Source: Microbacterium rhizomatis
Lineage (GTDB): Bacteria; Actinomycetota; Actinomycetes; Actinomycetales; Microbacteriaceae
Assembly: GCF_008710745.1 (NCBI RefSeq)
Contig: NZ_VYSA01000003.1
Coordinates: 62,001 to 126,000 of the forward strand
Direction of reading: 5' to 3'
Length of the DNA: 64,000 nt
The translations under genes were made by a program, and so were the position numbers. Below, in pieces: positions 6,029-42,391 of this stretch. The notes under the pieces are model-generated. The model ran no database searches and was not told the DNA's origin. It worked only from the letters and a program-made list of their open reading frames with translations. The first letter of the stretch is position 1; each line of letters starts with the position of its first letter.

Positions 6029-7480
<1,452 letters not shown>

Positions 7481-7686: not shown

Positions 7687-10600
7687 GTGCGCAGTGGTCT
7701 GATGAGGCGTGTTCTGGCAACGATCGCCGTCGTGGCGACGATCGCAGCGAGCGCCGTGGCGATCGGTGCACCCGCAGCTGCGGCCGGCGACACCGCCGTG
7801 CTGTCACAGCTGAAGACCGTTGTGGGTTCTCAGACGAACTTCGCGCCGGGCGACACGTTCCAGTACCAGATCGATCTGGGATGCTCGTCCACGATCGATC
7901 CGTCGTGCCGCAACACCAAGATCACCGACATCCTCCCGGCCCCCCTGGTCCTCGACCCGAGCGACCCCAGTCCCGTTTCGGCGACGACCAGCCCCAATGC
8001 CCCCGTCGACATCGCGCTGAGCGGCAACAACGGCTTCACCGTCACACCGCGCCTCTCGGCGGGCGGGTCGGCGGGGCTTCCCGCGGGCGGGAGCATGACG
8101 GTCTTCGTCTCGGTCCAGGTGCCGACGACGACAGGCGCCGACTTCAACGGGCAGACGATCACGAACACCTCGTTGGCGACCGCCGACAACGCGCAGGACG
8201 ACCAGTCCTCCGCCGACATCACGCTCACGGTCACCACGACGCTGTTCGCCTCGCTCTCGAAGACCGTGTCGCCCACGTCGACGCTTCCCGCCGCGGCGGG
8301 GCGCACCGTCGACTGGACCCTCGTCCCGGGGAACGCCTCGAATCAGACGGTCGACACGATCACCGTTCAGGATCCGATCACCCCGCCGGGGCCGTTCACG
8401 TACCTCGACATCACGAGCGTCGACATCACCGACCCGGCCGGGGCGACAGGAAGGGCGACCGAGTACTACGTGGGCGGCGTGTGGACGGCAACGCCACCGA
8501 CGCCGATCAGCCTTGCCAAGGGCGTACGCGTCGTCTTCACGGGATCGTTCGCGCCCGGCGTCACGGGGAACGTCGTGGTGCACTCGGTGACCAACGACAC
8601 CGTGAGTTCGATCCCGAACGGCCAGACCGTCGATGTCCAGAACGACGCGTCCACGACGGTGACGAAGTCGGGCGTCGACAGCCCTGTCGTCACCGACACC
8701 GCGTCGGTGTCGATCGCCGCGGTCGATCCCGACGTCAGCATCACCAAGAGCTTCCTCGACTCGACACTGGTCGCCGGACAGAGCACGACGATCGCGATCG
8801 TCGCGACCAACGGTGCGCAGGACGTGCAGACCTTGACGGTCACCGAGCCGTCGTCGGGCGAGCCCGGATTCACCGCCCAGGGCCTGGCCTTCAACGGCTT
8901 CGGGCCGACGCTCGCGTGGCCCGTGGCGGCGAGCTCGGCGACCATCCTCTACACCTACTCCGGTTCCGGATGCTCCACCCTGCCGCAGACGACCACCACG
9001 CCGCAGACGCTGCCCGCTCCGCAGAACGGATGCACGGTGGAGGGATTCACTGTCACCTATGCATCGACAGGCGACGGGATCACGGCGGGCGGCTACGCCG
9101 CACTCCCGCTCCTGGTGACGGCGCTTCCCGTTCCCACGCTCGCGCCGGTGAGCAGCACGAACGTCGTCGACACCCAGGTCGTCAACTCCGACGGCGCGAG
9201 CGGCGAGGCGACGGCATCCACGCCGTTCACGATCGATCCGCTGCGTATCGACACCGTCGTGTCGAAGTCGATCACGCCAACGGAGGCGTTCGCCGTTCCC
9301 GGGGCGAGCATCAGCATCGCCCTTTCGGGCAAGGTCAGCGATGACTCGACGGTCGGATCGACCAAACTCGAGATCTCGGACCCGGTGGACCCCGCGGCGA
9401 CGCCGGACTTCTGGAACACGTTCGCGCCCACCGCGGTGCGCAACACCGACATCCCCGGATGCAGCTCCCTCGAGTTGAGCTACTACTCCAAGGCCTCCGG
9501 GGACTGGGTCGACTTCCCCGGTGCGGGCAACGTGGCCGGCCCTGTGGCCGGCTACACCTATCCGATTCCTTCCGCCCTGCGCTCCGACATCGGCGGCATC
9601 CGGTTCACGTTCCGGCCGCTGCTGACGTCGCCCTGCACCGGCACGTTGCCGCCCGGATTCACGGTGCTGCCGAACATCGCGGCAGAGGTGCGCGAGTACT
9701 CGGATGTCAGCTCCGTCCACACCAACGACGTCCGGTCGGCCGTCAACAACCCCGTCGCGGTCGAGCCCGACGCGATCGACGACGCGTCCGCGCCGATCAC
9801 CCTGCAGCCCATCAACGGCGGCGACGGACCCGACTTCGTCGATAAGGCCTGGCTCGACGCGACCCTCCCCGCCCAGGTGCCCGCCCTCTCGGCGCAGACA
9901 CGCACCGCGCGGCTCTCGTGGAGCACGCAGGGACTCAACCTCACCTCGATGACACTCACCGACCCGGCCTCCACGGGCGAGCTGACGAACCCGGCGACCT
10001 CCGTGTACGACGCGTTCGACCTGGTCGCGATCAAGCCGATCACGCCGTCCACCGATCCGCTCATCGTCAACGATGTCGTCACGAGGGTGGAGCTGTACTC
10101 GACGACCGCGAACGACTGGGTCGACATCACGGCGGCCGCCTGCGCGCTCGGGTGCGACGGCGGTTTCGGCGGCTACGCGCTGTCGACCGCTCAGCAGGCA
10201 GACACACTCGGCGTGCGCGTCACGTTCACGGAGAAGACCGCCGGCGCGGGAGTGGGAACCTCCTACACCGGCCGCCCGTTCGACCTCGATTACCGCATCC
10301 GCGACACGCTCCGCAGCGATCCGACGCAGTACGTCCTGGGTCAGTACCACTCGTACACGTACAACACCACCACCCCCGGGCTGGTGAACAACACCGTCAG
10401 CGCGCGCGGCCAGAACCCGAGCATCGACTTCGATTCCACTTCGACGGATGCCGACACCATCCAGGTCATCGACAGCCCGGTCAACGTCACCCTCACCAAG
10501 AGCTTCGATCAGACGGTACTCGGGCTGCCGCAGGCCGGCACGCCTCAGGCGAACTACCCCCTCATCTCCGGCACCATCACCTCGCGGAACCAGTCCAACA

Positions 10601-13600
10601 CCAAGATCGCATCGATGGTCATCGACGACCCCTCGCCCGGTCAGGTCGCTCCGACCGCCTTCGAGACGCTCAACCTGTACTCCATCGATACGCTCACTCC
10701 GCCGAAGCCGCTCACCGCCGCGGATGTCACCGTCACGCTGACGCGAGAAGGGGGCGGAGTCGACCTGCCGATCTCGGGCGATGCTGCGAAGCTGCTGACT
10801 CCGGACCAGCTCGACGATGTCGTCGGCATCTCGGTCCGCTACGCCGACGCCGCCGGTCGCCCCATCATCGTGGCGGCGACCCCGGACTCAAACGACGCGG
10901 CAGGCGTCGTGGGTCTCACCTGGCAGCTTCGTGCCACCCAGCGCACATCCGGTGACCCGATCGCGGTGACCGAGCCCGGCGGCGAGCCGATCGTGAACGT
11001 CGCGCACACCGCCCTCGACAGCCCCGGACGCATCCCGTGCGTCAACGGTCAGAACATCCCCGGCTGCAGCACGGGGGAGTTCTACGCGTCCAGCCAGTTC
11101 AACATCGTCGCGGCCGACTACTCGATCTTCACCGACAAGGCCATCAACCCCGCGTCGGTGCTCGAGAACGGCTCGAAGAACTACACCACGACCCTCACCG
11201 CACGCCCGAACGGGAACGCGCGGACGTACCTCGCGACGGTGAGCGACAGCACGCCGACGTTCTGGAACACGATGACCTTCGTGGGCGCGCGCATCACCGT
11301 TCCGCAGCCCGTCAACCAGGTCGCCATGGACGTGCTCGTGAACGACGCGACCCGCGTGGTCGCCTATTCGGTCGTCGGCGGAGCGCTCGTCGCCACGTGC
11401 AACGGCCTGCCGCTGGACCAGACCTCCCCATGCTGGGCGACGGGTGACTGGGTGACCGCGAACCCGGGGTCCGCCGTGACGTTCGGCCTGCCGGGCGGCG
11501 TTTCTGCCGGTGATGTGGTGGGCACCCGATTCCGCGCCCAGGAGGTCGTCGACGGTGAAGTCGTGGTGTGGGAGCGCCCGTACAACCCGAAGCTCGACTT
11601 CGTCGTTCAGACGACGCGACGCGACTTCCTCCGCAGTGATCCCTCCGTGCCGGTGTCCACGACCCGCCCCGGCGTCGCCCCGAACCCCGGTGAGACGGTC
11701 TCGGGCACGATCACGAACACGGTCGTCACCGACGGGAACGCCCGGTTCGGAGCGTCGCAGCTCTATACCGGACATGCCGAGAAGACGACCACGACGCGCG
11801 TGACGCACCTGGTGAATCAGATCAGGGTCACCAAGACGCGCGGTACGACAGCCCTCTATCCGGCCGGCAGCACTGTGCCGTTCACGATGGTGGTCACCAA
11901 CACCGGTCGCTGGGACATGACCGGCTTCACAGTCGTGGATCAGATCACTCCCGTGGGCGGGTCGTCGCCGATGGTCGAGCCGAACCCGGCGCAGTACTCC
12001 TTCGCGATCACGGGCCCGAGCGCGCCGTCCGGCTCGGCCGGGTTCTCCGCCTCGCTGGATGCCGGCACCGGGCTCCTGTCGATCGTCAACTCCGACCCGA
12101 ACTTCGTCTTCAAGGCGGGGTGGACGCTCACCATCAAGGCCGGTCTCAATTTCCGCGCGGGCCTCTCGCCGGATGTGACGGTGCAGAACGCCGTGACTGC
12201 GACATCCGACCGCGCCTTCGAGAAGTGCGAGTCGACCTCGACCGACCTCAGGCCCAAGCCCGACGAGACCAACGTCGCATCGTGCACGGCGAACACGTCT
12301 GTGACTCCGCGCGCCGCCGCCACCGTGTCGCTGAAGAAGTGGGTCAAGGGCGAGCTCGCCGGCGACCCGAAGGACCCGACAGCGGACGACCTGGGCGTGC
12401 TGAACGTGGACGACACGATCGCGGGCGGTTCCGGCTCGGCGTGCGACTCGACGACGGACGCACCCAGAGACGCCGGCTACTACGATGAAGCCCGCTTCTA
12501 CTCGTACCCGTGCGCGCCGATCACCCGCCCGGGCGGCCTCGAGCGATGGCGGCTCGACTTCACGAACACGGGGAACGCGAACGCCAAGGTGCTCGCCATG
12601 GTCGACACGCTGCCCGCCGTCGGCGACAAGGGCGTCATCACGACGAACCCCCGCGGTTCGCAGTTCCCCGTGACGCTCGTGGGCAACGTGCAGACCAACA
12701 TCACCACCCTGCGGGATGCGAGCGACGCGCAGGTCGCCGCCTATTTCTCCACGGTCGTCCTGAGCGCCGACTGCAACAAGAACGCGATCAACGTCCACAC
12801 TGCGAACTCTGCACCGCTCCCGTCGTGCGTCTTCAACTGGACGCCGTTCACCTCCTCCACGCCTGAGTCGGATCTGGTGAACGCCAAGTCCGTCAAGTAC
12901 GTCGTCACGTTCACCCCGACCGTTGCGAAGCCGACGCCAGGACTTGCCCCCGGCGAAGTGCTCTCCCTCACCTACAGCACTCGGACCCCGTACGTGCTCC
13001 CGAAGGAGACGGCGATCTCGCAGGGCGCGTCGACCGCGTACAACTCGTTCGCCGGTGCCTCGCGCTCGGTCGCCACCCTGACGCAGCCCGAGACCCCCCA
13101 GGTCCCGCTCGAGCCGCAGCGCGTCGCGGTGGCGACCTCCACGGGTCAGCTGCAGATGAGCAAGAGCGTCGTCGCACCGTCGTTCTCCACGCCCATCCAG
13201 CTGCCGACGACGTACCCGCTCCTCGTGACGTGTGTGTCGGGCGGCGAGCCCGTCACCTTGCTCTACGCATCCGGCGGCGACGCGAGCCGGCCCACGGTCG
13301 CAGCCGATGGCACACTTCTGGTGTACGACGACCCGACAGGTCCCGTGAACCTCCCGCTGTTCGCTGACTGCACCGTCGTGGAAGACCCGGTTCCGCCCGG
13401 GGCGACCTCGGTGATCACCCCGCCGACCGCCCTGACCGCCGAGCGCGACCTGAGCTCGAATCCGCGTATCTTCAACGGCTATGCCGGCGACCCGACCCAG
13501 TCGTTCTTCGGCATCGAGAACACCTTCACCGCCGGCGGCTTCGTCGTCTCGAAGTCGATCGACAACGGCGGCGCGGTCGATCAGGACGGCACGCCGATCG

Positions 13601-15312
13601 CCTACAACAGCCTGTTCGGCTTCACCGCGTCGTGCACGTACCTCGGACAGGAAGCCGTCCCCGAGGGCGACCGTTCCTTCGCGCTCGCCGATGGAGAGAG
13701 CAAGACTTTCACCGGCATCCCGACCGGGGCCACCTGCGTCGTCACCGAGACCGACACGGCGGGCGCGGCATCGACGACGGTGAACGGTGTCCCGCAGGAA
13801 GGCACCCCGACTTCGAGCTTCACGATCGAGGAGGGCGAGACCCCGGCGTTCACGGCCGCGTTCGTGAACAACTACACGGTCGGCAGCGTGCAGGTCACGA
13901 AGCAGATCACCGGTACGGGAGCGGATGCCTGGGGCCAGGGTCCGTTCACCTTCCAGCTCGTGTGCACGCTCGACGCGGCCACCCCGAGCGTCGTCTACTC
14001 GGCGACGCACGACGTGACGCCCGACGAGCCGACGTGGACCGTAGACGACCTTCCGACGGGTGCGACGTGTGCGGTCAGCGAGCCGGACAACGCCGGTGCG
14101 ACGGAGTCGACGTTCTCGCCGGAGAGCCGCACCGTCACCGTCGGCGTCGCGGATCAGGATGAGCCCGCCCTCGTCACGGTGACGAACGACTTCCGCACCG
14201 GAGGGCTGAGGATCGCCAAGACGCTCTCCGGCCCCGGGGTGCCCGACTTCGGACGGGGACCGTTCGTGTTCTCGGTCGTCTGCACCTACCAGGACGCGAC
14301 CGTCTATACCGGCGATCTCACGGTGAGGACCGACGGTGAGCACCCGCTGTTCTCCGATACCGTCACCGGCATCCCGGTCGGCGCGGTCTGCGTGATTCGC
14401 GAGACGGACTCGGCCGGTGCGGACGACGTTCCCGGGCCGACGACCATCACCATCCCCGACGAGGAGAACGGCGTTCCGCAAGTCGCGACCACCGACCCCT
14501 TCGTCAACGAGTTCTCGGTCGCCGAACTGACGCTGACCAAGACGCTCGACGGTGCCGGTGCGACCGCCGACTACGCCACCAGCGCGGTCTTCACCGTCGT
14601 CGTGACGTGCGAGATGGAGGCCGGCGACGGCAGCATGATCACGCTGCTCGACAGCCCGTACGACATCAAGGGCGGCGAGACGATCACGCTGACGGATGCC
14701 GACGGAAACCCGGTGCGGATGCGGGCCGGCGCCCACTGCTACGGCACCGAGACGGTGACCGGCGGAGCGACGGCATCCGTCGTCACTCCGGACAACTACG
14801 AGGACGGCCTGGTGGTCCAGCCGGGCGCCGAGGTGCAGACCCTGGCGCTCGAGGCCACCAACACGTTCGACCCCGGCATCCTCGCCCTCTCGAAGGTCGT
14901 GACGGGGACCGCGGCCGAAGGCAATGCGTCCAAGACGTTCACGCTCGATCTCACCTGCGTGCTCGATCAGGGTCAGGAGACCCCGACCGTGCTGATCGAC
15001 CATCGCGCGGTCACGATCACGGGTGGTCAGACGATCCGTATCGAAGACCTCCCTATCGGTGCGCAGTGCTGGGTGGCCGAGACCGATAACGGCGGTGCCG
15101 ATCGCGTCGAGATCACCAACTCGACCGCGGCGATGCCCGCGGTGGTCGCTAGCGACCCCGTCACGATCACCGTGACCAACACGTTCACCGCGCCGCTGCC
15201 GGCCACCGGTGTCGACGGTCGGGCGCTGCTGATCGCAGGCGGGGTCGCCGGCATCCTGATCCTCGCGGGTGTCGTCGTGATGATCGTCATGCGCCGGCGC
15301 CGCCGGGATTGA
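7687..15312 (+). CDS. Giant LPATG-anchored surface protein with DUF11- and DUF5979-like repeats
   Basis: 2541 residues from GTG 7687, which follows a GGGGGGA ribosome site at 5-6 nt. The signal peptide is MRRVLATIAVVATIAASAVAIGAPAAAA-like (about residues 6-33). Residues about 35-1810 are a string of beta-rich modules with the DUF11 pattern (repeated VTKS/TKT strands, NT.T..N ends). From about 1820 to 2500 come roughly six DUF5979-like modules, each with VSKSI or TKTL at the start, a central cysteine pair (FTASC...ATCVV) and a closing VTNTF. The end has LPATG at about 2504-2508, a hydrophobic helix and RRRRRD, so sortase should attach it to peptidoglycan. It probably acts as an adhesin or stalk; the ligand is unknown. 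No sortase or pilin is adjacent. A long frame on the opposite strand is a GC artefact. Confidence 0.9.
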   Translation: MRSGLMRRVLATIAVVATIAASAVAIGAPAAAAGDTAVLSQLKTVVGSQTNFAPGDTFQYQIDLGCSSTIDPSCRNTKITDILPAPLVLDPSDPSPVSATTSPNAPVDIALSGNNGFTVTPRLSAGGSAGLPAGGSMTVFVSVQVPTTTGADFNGQTITNTSLATADNAQDDQSSADITLTVTTTLFASLSKTVSPTSTLPAAAGRTVDWTLVPGNASNQTVDTITVQDPITPPGPFTYLDITSVDITDPAGATGRATEYYVGGVWTATPPTPISLAKGVRVVFTGSFAPGVTGNVVVHSVTNDTVSSIPNGQTVDVQNDASTTVTKSGVDSPVVTDTASVSIAAVDPDVSITKSFLDSTLVAGQSTTIAIVATNGAQDVQTLTVTEPSSGEPGFTAQGLAFNGFGPTLAWPVAASSATILYTYSGSGCSTLPQTTTTPQTLPAPQNGCTVEGFTVTYASTGDGITAGGYAALPLLVTALPVPTLAPVSSTNVVDTQVVNSDGASGEATASTPFTIDPLRIDTVVSKSITPTEAFAVPGASISIALSGKVSDDSTVGSTKLEISDPVDPAATPDFWNTFAPTAVRNTDIPGCSSLELSYYSKASGDWVDFPGAGNVAGPVAGYTYPIPSALRSDIGGIRFTFRPLLTSPCTGTLPPGFTVLPNIAAEVREYSDVSSVHTNDVRSAVNNPVAVEPDAIDDASAPITLQPINGGDGPDFVDKAWLDATLPAQVPALSAQTRTARLSWSTQGLNLTSMTLTDPASTGELTNPATSVYDAFDLVAIKPITPSTDPLIVNDVVTRVELYSTTANDWVDITAAACALGCDGGFGGYALSTAQQADTLGVRVTFTEKTAGAGVGTSYTGRPFDLDYRIRDTLRSDPTQYVLGQYHSYTYNTTTPGLVNNTVSARGQNPSIDFDSTSTDADTIQVIDSPVNVTLTKSFDQTVLGLPQAGTPQANYPLISGTITSRNQSNTKIASMVIDDPSPGQVAPTAFETLNLYSIDTLTPPKPLTAADVTVTLTREGGGVDLPISGDAAKLLTPDQLDDVVGISVRYADAAGRPIIVAATPDSNDAAGVVGLTWQLRATQRTSGDPIAVTEPGGEPIVNVAHTALDSPGRIPCVNGQNIPGCSTGEFYASSQFNIVAADYSIFTDKAINPASVLENGSKNYTTTLTARPNGNARTYLATVSDSTPTFWNTMTFVGARITVPQPVNQVAMDVLVNDATRVVAYSVVGGALVATCNGLPLDQTSPCWATGDWVTANPGSAVTFGLPGGVSAGDVVGTRFRAQEVVDGEVVVWERPYNPKLDFVVQTTRRDFLRSDPSVPVSTTRPGVAPNPGETVSGTITNTVVTDGNARFGASQLYTGHAEKTTTTRVTHLVNQIRVTKTRGTTALYPAGSTVPFTMVVTNTGRWDMTGFTVVDQITPVGGSSPMVEPNPAQYSFAITGPSAPSGSAGFSASLDAGTGLLSIVNSDPNFVFKAGWTLTIKAGLNFRAGLSPDVTVQNAVTATSDRAFEKCESTSTDLRPKPDETNVASCTANTSVTPRAAATVSLKKWVKGELAGDPKDPTADDLGVLNVDDTIAGGSGSACDSTTDAPRDAGYYDEARFYSYPCAPITRPGGLERWRLDFTNTGNANAKVLAMVDTLPAVGDKGVITTNPRGSQFPVTLVGNVQTNITTLRDASDAQVAAYFSTVVLSADCNKNAINVHTANSAPLPSCVFNWTPFTSSTPESDLVNAKSVKYVVTFTPTVAKPTPGLAPGEVLSLTYSTRTPYVLPKETAISQGASTAYNSFAGASRSVATLTQPETPQVPLEPQRVAVATSTGQLQMSKSVVAPSFSTPIQLPTTYPLLVTCVSGGEPVTLLYASGGDASRPTVAADGTLLVYDDPTGPVNLPLFADCTVVEDPVPPGATSVITPPTALTAERDLSSNPRIFNGYAGDPTQSFFGIENTFTAGGFVVSKSIDNGGAVDQDGTPIAYNSLFGFTASCTYLGQEAVPEGDRSFALADGESKTFTGIPTGATCVVTETDTAGAASTTVNGVPQEGTPTSSFTIEEGETPAFTAAFVNNYTVGSVQVTKQITGTGADAWGQGPFTFQLVCTLDAATPSVVYSATHDVTPDEPTWTVDDLPTGATCAVSEPDNAGATESTFSPESRTVTVGVADQDEPALVTVTNDFRTGGLRIAKTLSGPGVPDFGRGPFVFSVVCTYQDATVYTGDLTVRTDGEHPLFSDTVTGIPVGAVCVIRETDSAGADDVPGPTTITIPDEENGVPQVATTDPFVNEFSVAELTLTKTLDGAGATADYATSAVFTVVVTCEMEAGDGSMITLLDSPYDIKGGETITLTDADGNPVRMRAGAHCYGTETVTGGATASVVTPDNYEDGLVVQPGAEVQTLALEATNTFDPGILALSKVVTGTAAEGNASKTFTLDLTCVLDQGQETPTVLIDHRAVTITGGQTIRIEDLPIGAQCWVAETDNGGADRVEITNSTAAMPAVVASDPVTITVTNTFTAPLPATGVDGRALLIAGGVAGILILAGVVVMIVMRRRRRD

Positions 15313-28303: not shown

Positions 28304-28561
28304 TCAGCGGTCGTATACGTCGCGGCGGTGGCCGAGCGTGATCACCGCGACGATGAGGATGTCGTCATCGATCGTGTAGATGATGCGGTAGTCGCCGATG
28401 CGTACGCGCAGACCCGGACGCCCTTGGAGTGCTCGTGCGCCGGGCGGGCGCGGGTCTTCGCCGAGGAGTGCGATCGCCCCACGGATTCGGTCGCGATCCT
28501 GATGATCGATTCGCTTCAGCGCCCGAACCGCGGCTGGGCGCAGTTCGACCCGATACGTCAT
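28304..28561 (-). CDS. RelE/ParE-family toxin
   Basis: 85 residues. YRVELRPAAVRALKRID, the basic centre RALQGRPGLRVRIGDYRIIYTIDDD and the closing VITLGHRRDVYDR are the standard RelE fold and catalytic region (Arg and Tyr). Such toxins cleave mRNA on the ribosome. It overlaps the upstream antitoxin gene by 4 bp. Confidence 0.92.
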   Translation of the reverse strand: MTYRVELRPAAVRALKRIDHQDRDRIRGAIALLGEDPRPPGARALQGRPGLRVRIGDYRIIYTIDDDILIVAVITLGHRRDVYDR

Positions 28562-28806
28562 ACCCAGCCCAGGTCGGCTTTCACCTGCGCCCAGGGGATG
28601 TTCGGACCTTCTTCCGCCATGGCGTCATCGAATGCGGCGACGTCTTCGGCGTCTTCGAGGGCTTCCATCATGCGTTCGTATTGGTCAGGGCTTACGACAA
28701 CCGCGGCACGGTGGCCGCGCCGTTCGATGAACACCGCCTCATTCTGCGAGCGAGCGATGACCTCCGAGAGGTGGTTGCGGGCGTCTGCGACACTGACCGT
28801 GGACAT
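28558..28806 (-). CDS. Phd/YefM-family antitoxin
   Basis: 82 residues from ATG 28806. The N-terminus STVSVADARNHLSEVIARSQNEAVFIERRGH is the Phd/YefM DNA-binding fold, and the acidic C-terminus binds toxin. The start is chosen because a -10 box TACAAT (28813-28818) lies 6 nt upstream. An upstream in-frame start at 28821 would fall inside the promoter. It is co-transcribed with the toxin and probably autorepressed. Confidence 0.92.
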   Translation of the reverse strand: MSTVSVADARNHLSEVIARSQNEAVFIERRGHRAAVVVSPDQYERMMEALEDAEDVAAFDDAMAEEGPNIPWAQVKADLGWV

Positions 28807-28812
28807 GGGGCA

Positions 28813-28841
28813 ATTGTACATCTCAGCGATTCAGATGTACA
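28813..28841 (-). promoter_or_regulatory. Promoter-operator of the toxin-antitoxin module
   Basis: A perfect inverted repeat, TGTACATCT and AGATGTACA (9-bp arms, 9-bp spacer, 28815-28841), spans a promoter with -35 TGTACA (28836-28841), a 17-bp spacer and -10 TACAAT (28813-28818). Each arm covers one promoter element, as expected for antitoxin autorepression. Confidence 0.75.
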
Positions 28842-32552: not shown

Positions 32553-32777
32553 GCGGATGTCCTCTTCCTGGGCCCGGATCACCCGTCGCCACTCCTGCGA
32601 CGATACTGAGCGCCGAGGACGAGCCCGATGGGGTTGACAGTGAGCCGAACGATTGCGGTTCGTCGACCAACGGTACAGCGCCGTCGCGGGTGGGGCCTCG
32701 ATTTGTCTACGACCTGCCCTGCGAATGCAGAGTGATGTACTATAACCGTAATATTCGATATGCAAGGGAGCTCACGC

Positions 32778-33335
32778 ATGAGGATGATGATCACCATCGG
32801 CGCAATCGCAGCAATGTTAACCGCGGGGGTAGGGGGTCCGGCTCTCGGCTCAGGCCTCGATTCCGAGCCAGAGCCCGCGTCGGTGGCAAGTCCGTACCCC
32901 GACGGTGGCGACAATCCCACTGATCCGGCTCTGGTGTACCCCTCGATTTCGAGCCTCCGTGCCGAGGGCAACGATCATGCGGTTTCGGCGACAGGAATCA
33001 GTCCAGCCGGGTGCTACGGCCAAACAGACATTCCTCACCCATCTGAGCTCATCTATGCGTCCGTGCATGGCCGCACGTATTGCGAGCTAGCACCAGTGCT
33101 GGAGTTGGGTGTGACCACGACACTCCAGAAGCTGGGATGGCTCTATTGGGAGTACGCGCTTGCCGACAAGAACATGAGCCAATACAGTCGCACCTCAAAT
33201 GACGCTCATCCTCACTGGCAGTGCAGTGGCTGGGGATCCCAGGCCTATCGGGGGACCTCGTTCCACTACTCGGTAGAGCCATCGGGGACGTACACCTCCA
33301 ACACGACGGGCTTGGAGCGGCGCTTCTCTTGCTGA
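32778..33335 (+). CDS. Secreted four-cysteine protein of unknown function
   Basis: 185 residues from ATG 32778, which follows GGGAG at 7 nt. A signal peptide (MRMMITIGAIAAMLTAGVGGPALG) is followed by a Ser/Pro/Asp-rich linker to about residue 55. The mature domain has four cysteines (about residues 76, 95, 153 and the very last residue) and many Trp and Tyr residues (LGWLYWEYALAD, HWQCSGWGSQAYRGTS). I have a weak recollection of similar cysteine spacing in unnamed actinobacterial secreted proteins. Base composition is less GC-rich than around it and a TTA codon occurs in the signal peptide, hinting at transfer. It overlaps the next gene. Confidence 0.7.
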   Translation: MRMMITIGAIAAMLTAGVGGPALGSGLDSEPEPASVASPYPDGGDNPTDPALVYPSISSLRAEGNDHAVSATGISPAGCYGQTDIPHPSELIYASVHGRTYCELAPVLELGVTTTLQKLGWLYWEYALADKNMSQYSRTSNDAHPHWQCSGWGSQAYRGTSFHYSVEPSGTYTSNTTGLERRFSC

Positions 33336-33895
33336 GGAAGGTAATCGTCATGGTCACGGTTGCCTTATTGTGCGCCGGTTGCACTCCGGAGGCATCGACG
33401 CAACGGCGAGAGGCTGGGCAACCGCTTTCCTCCTCTGCCCCGGTCCCATCGACACCGCCAAGCCTGCTCGTCAACAACGCGCCCATCGACCTCGCCTCAT
33501 ACGACTGGGTGATCGATGGAAAGAAAGAGAACTTCAGGGTGTCCGCGCAGGAGAACGATGCGACGCTGCAGGAGGTGGCCCTCGAGCAGAATGTTCCCGT
33601 AGTCATGACGATTCGGCCCGGGAGGATGCCAGATCAGTTGATCGTGAGCGCTTTCGACGAATTGGATGATCGGGGGATTCCTACCTCGAGCACTGGCAAA
33701 GAGTTCGACTGCAATCGCGGGCAGTGCGACGTGACTTCAGTATCCAGCGCGATGCTCACGTTCAGCGTGACCCTTCCACCAGAAACACGCGTCTTCGCTA
33801 CGCATGTTGGCTACTTCGACGCAACGGGGTTGGGTTCGGGGCGAGAGCCGGTCCTGCTATCTGCCTCCTGGGGTGTGCGGGTTGCACATGACTAG
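33329..33895 (+). CDS. Putative lipoprotein, unknown function
   Basis: 188 residues if TTG 33329 is used: LRKVIVMVTVALLCAGC gives a basic N-region, a hydrophobic core and a lipobox-like CAGC. ATG 33350 has a better ribosome site (AGGAAGG) but would leave no basic N-region. After the acylated cysteine comes a Ser/Thr/Pro-rich linker, then a domain from about 55 to 188 with two further cysteines (FDCNRGQC) and beta-strand pattern. It overlaps the secreted-protein gene and contains a TTA codon. Confidence 0.65.
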   Translation: MLRKVIVMVTVALLCAGCTPEASTQRREAGQPLSSSAPVPSTPPSLLVNNAPIDLASYDWVIDGKKENFRVSAQENDATLQEVALEQNVPVVMTIRPGRMPDQLIVSAFDELDDRGIPTSSTGKEFDCNRGQCDVTSVSSAMLTFSVTLPPETRVFATHVGYFDATGLGSGREPVLLSASWGVRVAHD

Positions 33896-33912
33896 CCGCG
33901 CCTCGAGCTGTC

Positions 33913-34551
33913 ATGTCAGTTGAAGACGCGAAATGGTTGCAGACGCCATCGCTCAGGCCGGCCGTCGTTGTCTCGGACTACGTCTCTGGATACTTCAAGG
34001 CGTATGTCAGGGTCATGAACCCAGCGACCGATCTGACGACAGGGAAGCCGACCAGTTGGTCTCGCGTCGCGGCAGGTCACAAATTGGTGGTTGACGGGAC
34101 GACGCAGTGGCATCAGATCGCACAGATTCTGCCGCCCGCCCAGTGGGAGCTGATCCTGCAGCCGGAGATGGGAACCATGAGCAGGGACACTGCGCGAGCG
34201 CTCGCTACCCACCTCCCCGGCGCACATGATGATCACATCATCGGTGCCGTGTGGGCAGGATATGCGGATGTTCCGGTCGGTCCGAGGATCTTCCTCAGCG
34301 GTGACCGCGAATACATCATCGTCGCGGGATCAATCGATGAGGTGCCTGGCGGATACCAGCCGCATGCATTCGAGCGCATCCCTCTGAGGTGGTGGCCGGG
34401 CGACCACGCGTGGTGCATCGGAAACGACATCTACGCGAGAAGCGTGTACGTCGGCGCAAGCCAGGACGTGGCAGACGCGATCCTGGCCGACTCGTCGCTG
34501 GAGGCGTATCCCGTGTCGCCTGACATGACCGTTCGCGCCGAGGATCTCTGA
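33913..34551 (+). CDS. Hypothetical cytoplasmic protein
   Basis: 212 residues, no signal peptide or membrane helix. Notable features are aromatic and His-rich segments (FERIPLRWWPGDHAWCIGNDIYA) and a conserved-looking WAGYADVPVGPRIFLSGDREY. No family recognised. It starts 17 nt after the lipoprotein stop on the same strand and has the same less GC-rich composition, so the three genes seem to have moved together. Confidence 0.6.
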   Translation: MSVEDAKWLQTPSLRPAVVVSDYVSGYFKAYVRVMNPATDLTTGKPTSWSRVAAGHKLVVDGTTQWHQIAQILPPAQWELILQPEMGTMSRDTARALATHLPGAHDDHIIGAVWAGYADVPVGPRIFLSGDREYIIVAGSIDEVPGGYQPHAFERIPLRWWPGDHAWCIGNDIYARSVYVGASQDVADAILADSSLEAYPVSPDMTVRAEDL

Positions 34552-41800: not shown

Positions 41801-42097
41801 TCAAGCGGGGATGAGCAATTCGACCTGAGCAAGGTCCGCGTCGTGTTCGTCGTGTTCGAGTTCGATGTCGTAGTCGTTCTGGATGTTGAGCCAGAAGCGC
41901 TCGGAGAGCCCGAACGCGCGGGAAAGCCGCAATGCGGTGTCCGTGGTGATGCGCCGCTTGCCGCGGATGATCTCGCTCAATCGGGTCTGGGGCAGGCCGG
42001 TGGCCTGCGCGAGCCGATACGCAGTGATCCCGAGTGGCTCCAGAAACTCGGTCCGGAGGATCTCGCCCGGCGTGATGGGCGCGTGTGCCTTCGTCAT
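41801..42097 (-). CDS. higA: HigA-family antitoxin
   Basis: 98 residues: HAPITPGEILRTEFLEPLGI, then HTH TAYRLAQATGLPQTRLSEIIRGKRRIT and FWLNIQNDYDIE, the standard HigA (VapI) pattern. The toxin gene lies upstream, as usual in higBA, with 12 nt between them and GAGAGG as the ribosome site. Confidence 0.93.
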   Translation of the reverse strand: MTKAHAPITPGEILRTEFLEPLGITAYRLAQATGLPQTRLSEIIRGKRRITTDTALRLSRAFGLSERFWLNIQNDYDIELEHDEHDADLAQVELLIPA

Positions 42098-42109
42098 CGG
42101 AGTGCCTCT

Positions 42110-42391
42110 CTAGCGATAGTCGACCAGCTGGACGTCTGCGGGGCCGGCGGCCGTCCAGACGAAACAGATGCGGTATTGATCGTTGATCCGGATCGAGTGC
42201 TGACCGTCGCGATCGCCAGACAGCTTCTCGAGCCGGTTTCCCGGCGGGATGCGCAGGTCATTGATCGTTTCGGCCGCGTTGAGCAGACGAAGCTTCTTCT
42301 GGGCTGCGCGCTGCAGTTCCGGACCGAACTGCCGGACATGCTCGCGAGTCCAGACTCTGCGGGTCGGCTCATCTGCGAATGAGTGGATCAC
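42110..42391 (-). CDS. higB: HigB-family toxin
   Basis: 93 residues from GTG 42391. The core RLEKLSGDRDGQHSIRINDQ followed by YRICFVW is diagnostic of ribosome-dependent HigB mRNA nucleases. A -10 box TACTAT (42397-42402) lies 5 nt upstream, with a second TACTAT 16 bp further, so the start is likely leaderless. Longer in-frame starts run into the promoter. Confidence 0.92.
   Translation of the reverse strand: MIHSFADEPTRRVWTREHVRQFGPELQRAAQKKLRLLNAAETINDLRIPPGNRLEKLSGDRDGQHSIRINDQYRICFVWTAAGPADVQLVDYR

What the first reader, a model, noticed from the sequence alone, without database searches (positions are those of the whole stretch)
32778..34551. Three-gene cluster: secreted four-Cys protein, lipoprotein and cytoplasmic protein
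The genes overlap or lie 17 nt apart, are less GC-rich than the surroundings, contain rare TTA codons and have no family I recognise. A secreted protein with an overlapping lipoprotein gene and a cytosolic third gene could be an effector with membrane immunity, or an envelope sensing unit. This is the most plausible undescribed system in the window.
Basis: inference. Interest (0 to 1): 0.6.

Follow-up and report, generated by a model that had tools for sequence, protein, structure and literature searches.

The report
Secreted four-cysteine protein with lipoprotein partner
An actinobacterium carries a small, foreign-looking gene set for a secreted protein with four cysteines, a membrane-anchored partner and an exchangeable third protein; the pair recurs in distant relatives and the secreted domain once sits at the tip of a giant toxin-like protein, which suggests, but does not prove, an undescribed bacterial weapon and its protector.

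Summary
In detail: three tightly packed + strand genes (32778-34551) of foreign composition, with no significant match in Pfam, NCBIfam, PADLOC-DB or PHROGs. The secreted four-Cys protein (P1) and the lipoprotein (P2) form a conserved pair in three Actinomycetes families: P2 follows P1 in 18 of 22 P1 loci, and P1 cysteine spacing is 22-27/44-48/34-37 in 16 of 16 intact pairs. The third, cytosolic gene is not a fixed partner: P3-type in five of the 18, other genes in nine, none in four. The best functional clue is one locus (G1012) where the P1 domain follows the core of an apparently Sec-exported RHS protein, the slot that carries toxins. I read P1 as an exported antibacterial effector acting at the envelope and P2 as its surface immunity protein. 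Against this: P1 is often better conserved than P2, four P1 loci (the RHS one included) lack P2, and no fold or activity is known (both AlphaFold models failed). Toxicity is inferred, not shown.

The parts
32778..33335 (+). P1: exported protein, 185 aa; signal peptide and variable pro-region, then the four-Cys domain
   Evidence: ORF and translation; family alignments; start chosen by ribosome-site context GGGAG upstream; alternative ATG at 32760
33012..33332 (+). P1 four-Cys core domain, C79 to C185, spacing 23/47/36
   Evidence: Spacing conserved in homologues and near-identical in the RHS C-terminal domain, 25/50/37
33329..33895 (+). P2: lipoprotein with lipobox-like LLCAGC; start TTG 33329 (overlaps P1 by 7 nt) or ATG 33350; conserved W, P and two Cys in the mature part
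33913..34551 (+). P3: cytosolic protein, 212 aa; exchangeable third gene, member of a broad actinobacterial superfamily with a conserved WWPxDxAW region near the C-terminus

Best explanation
The core is a two-gene effector-immunity cassette. P1 is exported by Sec, folds outside into a roughly 110-residue domain probably held by two disulphides (inferred from four conserved Cys), and acts on the envelope of neighbouring actinobacteria, diffusing or wall-bound. P2, tethered to the outer face of the producer's membrane, neutralises P1 there. The cytosolic third gene (P3 here) is an exchangeable accessory: a second immunity, regulatory or unrelated cargo gene. Shown: the genes, export signals, conservation of the pair, one RHS fusion, exchange of the third gene. 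Inferred: toxicity, target, disulphides, P1-P2 binding, role of P3.
For: P2 follows P1 on the same strand in 18 of 22 P1 loci (39 loci scanned): in 13 of 17 loci found with P1 queries, the seed left out, and P1 lies upstream in 4 of 7 loci newly found with P2 queries, one of these four P1 having an in-frame stop. Cys spacing holds in 16 of 16 intact pairs (15; G991 from its Cys positions). A permissive lipobox pattern 12-35 residues from a start codon is present in 17 of 18 P2. In G1012 the P1 domain follows the RHS core (TIGR03696 E 1e-9, RHS_repeat E 4e-7), profile match E 6.9e-14 (hhalign 97 %), with a signal-peptide-like stretch upstream of the first start I had chosen. P2 without a P1 in the stretch held: G728, G744, G603; P1 with in-frame stop beside open P2: G835. 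Leifsonia copy on a plasmid beside mobilisation genes; G047 copy beside a relaxase-like gene (name recalled). P1 and P2 distances correlate (Mantel r 0.70, p 0.0001, 16 pairs).
Against: P1 core is much better conserved than P2 in 5 of the 7 closest pairs (90/47, 84/44, 67/31, 60/32, 55/28 %), unlike fast-evolving toxins; in two it is about equal (73/71, 47/52) (P2 was measured with its signal and linker, which lowers its figures). Four P1 loci lack P2: G716, G761 second copy, G1031 (partial P1) and the RHS fusion itself, which is followed by an unrelated gene. Two sets look settled in the chromosome (G761 and G973, beside leuB; G967 and G919, between a Spo0M-like and a SARP-like gene; names recalled). 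The RHS fusion is a single case; the other four genomes of its genus lack the domain. No fold: mean pLDDT 32.8 for P1. The Mantel correlation is expected of any co-inherited pair.
Confidence: 0.45

Rival explanations
1. Envelope ligand-receptor or adhesion unit without toxicity: P1 is a wall or surface ligand, P2 its lipoprotein receptor or anchor, the third gene a reader or regulator.
For: P1 more conserved than P2 in 5 of the 7 closest pairs; apparently settled chromosomal positions in two sets; two pairs precede a SARP-like regulator (name recalled); no growth data.
Against: RHS C-terminal position of the P1 domain, one case; scattered distribution (3 of 198 genus genomes); plasmid carriage; a P1 with in-frame stop beside an open P2; third gene not a fixed regulator.
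Confidence: 0.28
2. P1 is a toxin that must enter the cytosol, the third gene is its cytosolic immunity, and P2 is a surface anchor or secretion partner comparable to MafA of Neisseria.
For: Third gene is cytosolic by sequence, close to P2, and of several unrelated types; the RHS copy is followed by a gene without signal; MafA lipoproteins accompany MafB toxins (PMC3482391 passages) and MafA is needed for MafB secretion (PMC7738311 abstract).
Against: Four of 18 pairs have no such third gene, and the first G761 copy lacks it although its P1 and P2 are 73 and 71 % identical to those of G973, which has one; of 31 plasmid records with a P3 relative only Leifsonia gave tblastn hits for P1 and P2; four conserved Cys argue for action outside. 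MafA is encoded upstream and sits in a Gram-negative outer membrane.
Confidence: 0.15
3. Ordinary secreted protein such as a protease inhibitor or wall component, with a neighbouring lipoprotein of no direct relation.
For: Size and four Cys recall the Streptomyces subtilisin inhibitor (recalled, no call).
Against: No Pfam match at E 0.1 in 16 of 16 P1 members; P2 follows P1 in 18 of 22 loci.
Confidence: 0.12

Closest known systems
Polymorphic toxin systems with RHS proteins (PMC3482391; abstract start and passages seen)
   Same: P1 domain occurs once after the RHS core of an apparently exported RHS protein; that paper describes C-terminal toxin domains and standalone toxin cassettes with immunity genes
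   Different: P1 is mostly a small free Sec-type protein, fairly constant, and its partner is a lipoprotein; the passage I read calls Imm65 (Bacteroidetes, with Tox-JAB-1) the only lipoprotein immunity of that collection
MafB toxin / MafA lipoprotein of Neisseria (PMC3482391 passages; PMC7738311 abstract)
   Same: Secreted toxin with a neighbouring lipoprotein
   Different: Gram-negative; MafA upstream, outer-membrane and part of secretion; no direct sequence comparison made, no Pfam match here
Lantibiotic immunity lipoproteins (NisI, SpaI type; recalled)
   Same: Surface lipoprotein protects the producer of an exported antibacterial
   Different: Substrate is a modified peptide, not a four-Cys protein; recalled only, no test
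Streptomyces subtilisin inhibitor (recalled)
   Same: Small secreted protein with four Cys
   Different: No Pfam match in any of 16 P1 members

Membership tests
Polymorphic toxin system | Toxin domain at the C-terminus of a large exported carrier with RHS or similar repeats | tested here: inconclusive
   One of 22 P1 loci (G1012); window P1 is a standalone protein
Polymorphic toxin system | Immunity gene directly downstream | tested here: inconclusive
   P2 downstream in 18 of 22 loci, but that P2 protects is untested; the RHS copy has an unrelated downstream gene
Polymorphic toxin system | Variable toxin domain on a constant carrier | tested here: not met
   Here the exported protein is the more constant part in 5 of the 7 closest pairs, and the third gene varies
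Polymorphic toxin system | Growth inhibition by the domain, relieved by the immunity protein | not testable with these tools
   Needs bench work
Protein bacteriocin with lipoprotein immunity | Exported small protein and co-operonic lipoprotein | tested here: met
   (signals judged by eye and pattern, no signal-peptide program)
Protein bacteriocin with lipoprotein immunity | Antibacterial activity against relatives | not testable with these tools
   Needs bench work
Streptomyces subtilisin inhibitor and other curated families | Match to a curated profile | tested here: not met
   0 of 16 P1 members match Pfam at E 0.1; P0001 has 0 NCBIfam hits
Known anti-phage defence systems | Match to PADLOC-DB profiles | tested here: not met
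   0 families for P0001-P0003 at E 1

The most novel reading that the evidence does not exclude
An undescribed family of envelope-acting antibacterial proteins in Actinomycetes: a conserved four-Cys domain deployed either as a small Sec-secreted protein or as the warhead of an exported RHS giant, neutralised from outside by a dedicated lipoprotein family, with a slot for interchangeable cytosolic genes behind the pair.
Probability: 0.42. Interest if true: 0.72.

Novelty: new variant of a known kind. Interest (0 to 1): 0.58.

Why it matters
If true, it gives actinobacteria of at least three families a protein weapon with surface immunity that none of the profile libraries used here detects, and that is carried on a plasmid in at least one strain. 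It offers a compact, testable toxin-immunity pair, a new RHS warhead class, and a handle on orphan protein families (P3 and the other third genes), of which P3 is common in actinobacterial genomes and plasmids.

Tried and rejected
Rejected or without result: (1) A fixed three-gene system: the third gene is exchanged or missing (and loci). (2) Phage origin: no P1 or P3 hit in the phage collection; viral-contig scans gave no relative. (3) Weak P1 hits G310, G522, G526, G608: not seen by the P1 profile, dropped. (4) 26 of 34 P2 hits (E 1e-4 to 1e-2) are nearly all short N-terminal matches, dropped. (5) Relatedness of third genes: T2, T3, the G084 gene and the RHS neighbour show no match to P3; the third gene of G1042 is not convincingly T2 (probability 9). 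(6) Solved structures: only chance-level hits, E 0.7-1.8. (7) Structure prediction: pLDDT 32.8 and 34.4, so no fold search was run. (8) Empty-site test: strong matches to the two flanking genes did not fall together in the relatives listed, no conclusion. (9) Promoter and terminator scans: none found. (10) Plasmid searches with P1, with the G761 P1 and with the RHS domain: only Leifsonia for P1. (11) The one genome-contig scan used a single P3 sequence and found one relative, L012, so it says little.

Literature: search listings only; passages of PMC3482391 and PMC12691689; abstract and outline of PMC7738311. None of these seven listings showed a description of this pair; that is the whole basis for calling it undescribed.

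Full report
What is there. The window lies at G000:C3:62001-126000 of a 4.2-Mb genome. The genus is unnamed; the closest named record with all three genes is a Leifsonia plasmid, Microbacteriaceae. The three ORFs are real and packed: P1 32778-33335, P2 33329 or 33350 to 33895, P3 33913-34551. GC, GC3 and, for P1 and P2, TTA use set them apart from 45 other called genes, and the GC dip is visible along the sequence. My codon-based gene caller did not call P1 and P2 and called only part of P3, as expected of recent arrivals.

Co-occurrence. P1 is rare near home: 3 of 198 genus genomes; 6 of 349 family genomes with a four-sequence profile, three of them weak and dropped; 4 of 394 class genomes, one weak; these counts include the window's own genome. 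With an eight-sequence P1 profile, 11 of 150 genomes of the family of G752 matched. The lipoprotein profile gave 34 of 394 class genomes at E 0.01, only eight of them below 1e-7, and 2 of 150 in the genus of G835. Of 39 loci then scanned together, 22 hold a P1. P2 follows on the same strand in 18: window, Leifsonia plasmid, G047, G084, G349, G248, G761 (first copy), G752, G610, G973 (two), G992, G1042, G967, G919, G982, G991, G835; these belong to three families (f1, f24, f26). It is missing at G716, G761 (second copy), G1031 and G1012. Three P2 loci show no P1 in the stretch held: G728, G744, G603. Counting only what each query could not know, P2 is present at 13 of 17 P1-found loci (seed left out) and P1 at 4 of 7 newly P2-found loci.

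Anatomy of the pair. P1 ends in a domain with four Cys spaced 22-27, 44-48 and 34-37 in 16 of 16 intact pairs (for G991 the script worked on a piece cut before the last Cys, and I take its spacing 25/47/34 from the positions). G716 has 26/49/36; the second G761 copy did not fit the pattern. Many members have a motif like YRSRWYGWE where the window has LQKLGWLYWE. P2 has a lipobox-like motif by a permissive pattern in 17 of 18; in the exception, G610, LAGC is there but the open frame begins only a few residues before it, so its N-terminus may be broken. The mature part keeps D-W, P and two Cys. P1 and P2 distances are correlated (r 0.70, 16 pairs). P1 core is far better conserved than P2 in 5 of the 7 closest pairs and about equal in the other two.

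The third gene. It lies close behind P2 on the same strand in 14 of the 18 pairs: P3 superfamily in window, Leifsonia, G047, G349 and, in a longer form, G248 (hhalign 98 %); a second family (T2) in G752, G610, the second G973 locus and G992 (pairwise blastp E from 0.014 to 2e-88), with the first G973 locus weakly attached (49 %); a third (T3) in G835 and G982 (1e-14); single types in G084 (130 nt behind P2) and G1042. G761 first copy, G967, G919 and G991 have none of these. P3 itself belongs to a broad family: 31 plasmid records, 24 of them Rhodococcus or Mycobacterium, of which only the Leifsonia record also gave P1 and P2 hits. In the genus 74 of 198 genomes match P3: six nearly full-length places in five genomes, two of them in the window's own genome, and in most of the other 69 a short C-terminal match; in the seven of these that I translated in the right orientation it lies in a larger conserved protein of very roughly 325 residues. 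So P3 is a recruited gene, not part of the core.

The RHS case. In G1012 the domain is the last 124 residues of a frame of 2421 codons. The last 800 residues contain RHS repeats and the RHS core (residues 613-677 of them), and the P1-like part starts at that point, with Cys spacing 25/50/37. Upstream of my first start choice the frame holds a signal-peptide-like stretch. That position is where RHS proteins carry their toxin domain (PMC3482391 and general knowledge). The gene behind it matches no Pfam or NCBIfam family and none of P1, P2, P3, T2 or T3. None of the other four genomes of that genus has the domain (1 of 5), so the fusion rests on one genome.

Reading. Two exported partners, one free and one tethered, kept together across three families while the rest of the locus changes; a plasmid copy; P2 present where P1 is absent or broken; and the P1 domain in an RHS warhead slot. 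This fits an exported effector and its surface immunity best. The broken copies are weak evidence: G349 (170 contigs) may carry assembly errors and G835 is a single stop. The frequent stronger conservation of P1, the P1 loci without P2 and the apparently settled chromosomal pairs speak for a ligand-type role, to which I give rather more than half the weight of the toxin reading. A cytosol-acting toxin with the third gene as immunity is less likely because close relatives differ in having the third gene.

Known or not. No member of P1 (16) or P3 (14) and, beyond two insignificant hits, of P2 (10) matches Pfam at E 0.1, and profiles find nothing meaningful among solved structures. The 2012 survey of polymorphic toxins names one lipoprotein immunity protein, Imm65 (passages). 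Streptomyces exports alarmone synthetases by Sec without neighbouring immunity genes (PMC12691689, passages), a useful contrast. I found no account of this pair in seven paper searches, read as listings.

Noticed in passing
L055:5469-6128 (- strand): In G248 a second secreted-looking protein gene with late Cys lies directly upstream of P1, a possible tandem P1-like copy.
   Followed up: no
L098 (G835) and L054 (G349): P1 of G835 has an in-frame stop while P2 and the third gene are open; in G349 P1 and P2 are frameshifted while P3 is open.
   Followed up: partly
L099 (G603): A partial P2 (1590-1910, - strand) without P1 has a P3-family gene about 290 bases away on the other strand (609-1298), profile E 3.6e-28.
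   Followed up: no
L060 (G000:C2), 6158-6721: The same genome carries a second, 34 % identical P3 relative; no P1 or P2 in the 13 kb held.
   Followed up: partly
window 28304-28821 (- strand): RelE/Phd-like toxin-antitoxin pair (names recalled, translations).
   Followed up: no
window 41801-42391 (- strand): HigA/HigB-like toxin-antitoxin pair (names recalled).
   Followed up: no
window 7702-15312 (+ strand): Very large, probably exported protein of 2536 aa.
   Followed up: no
L057:4336-5694 (+ strand): In G716 a P1-like gene is preceded by a frame with a different lipoprotein-like stretch; no P2 seen.
   Followed up: no
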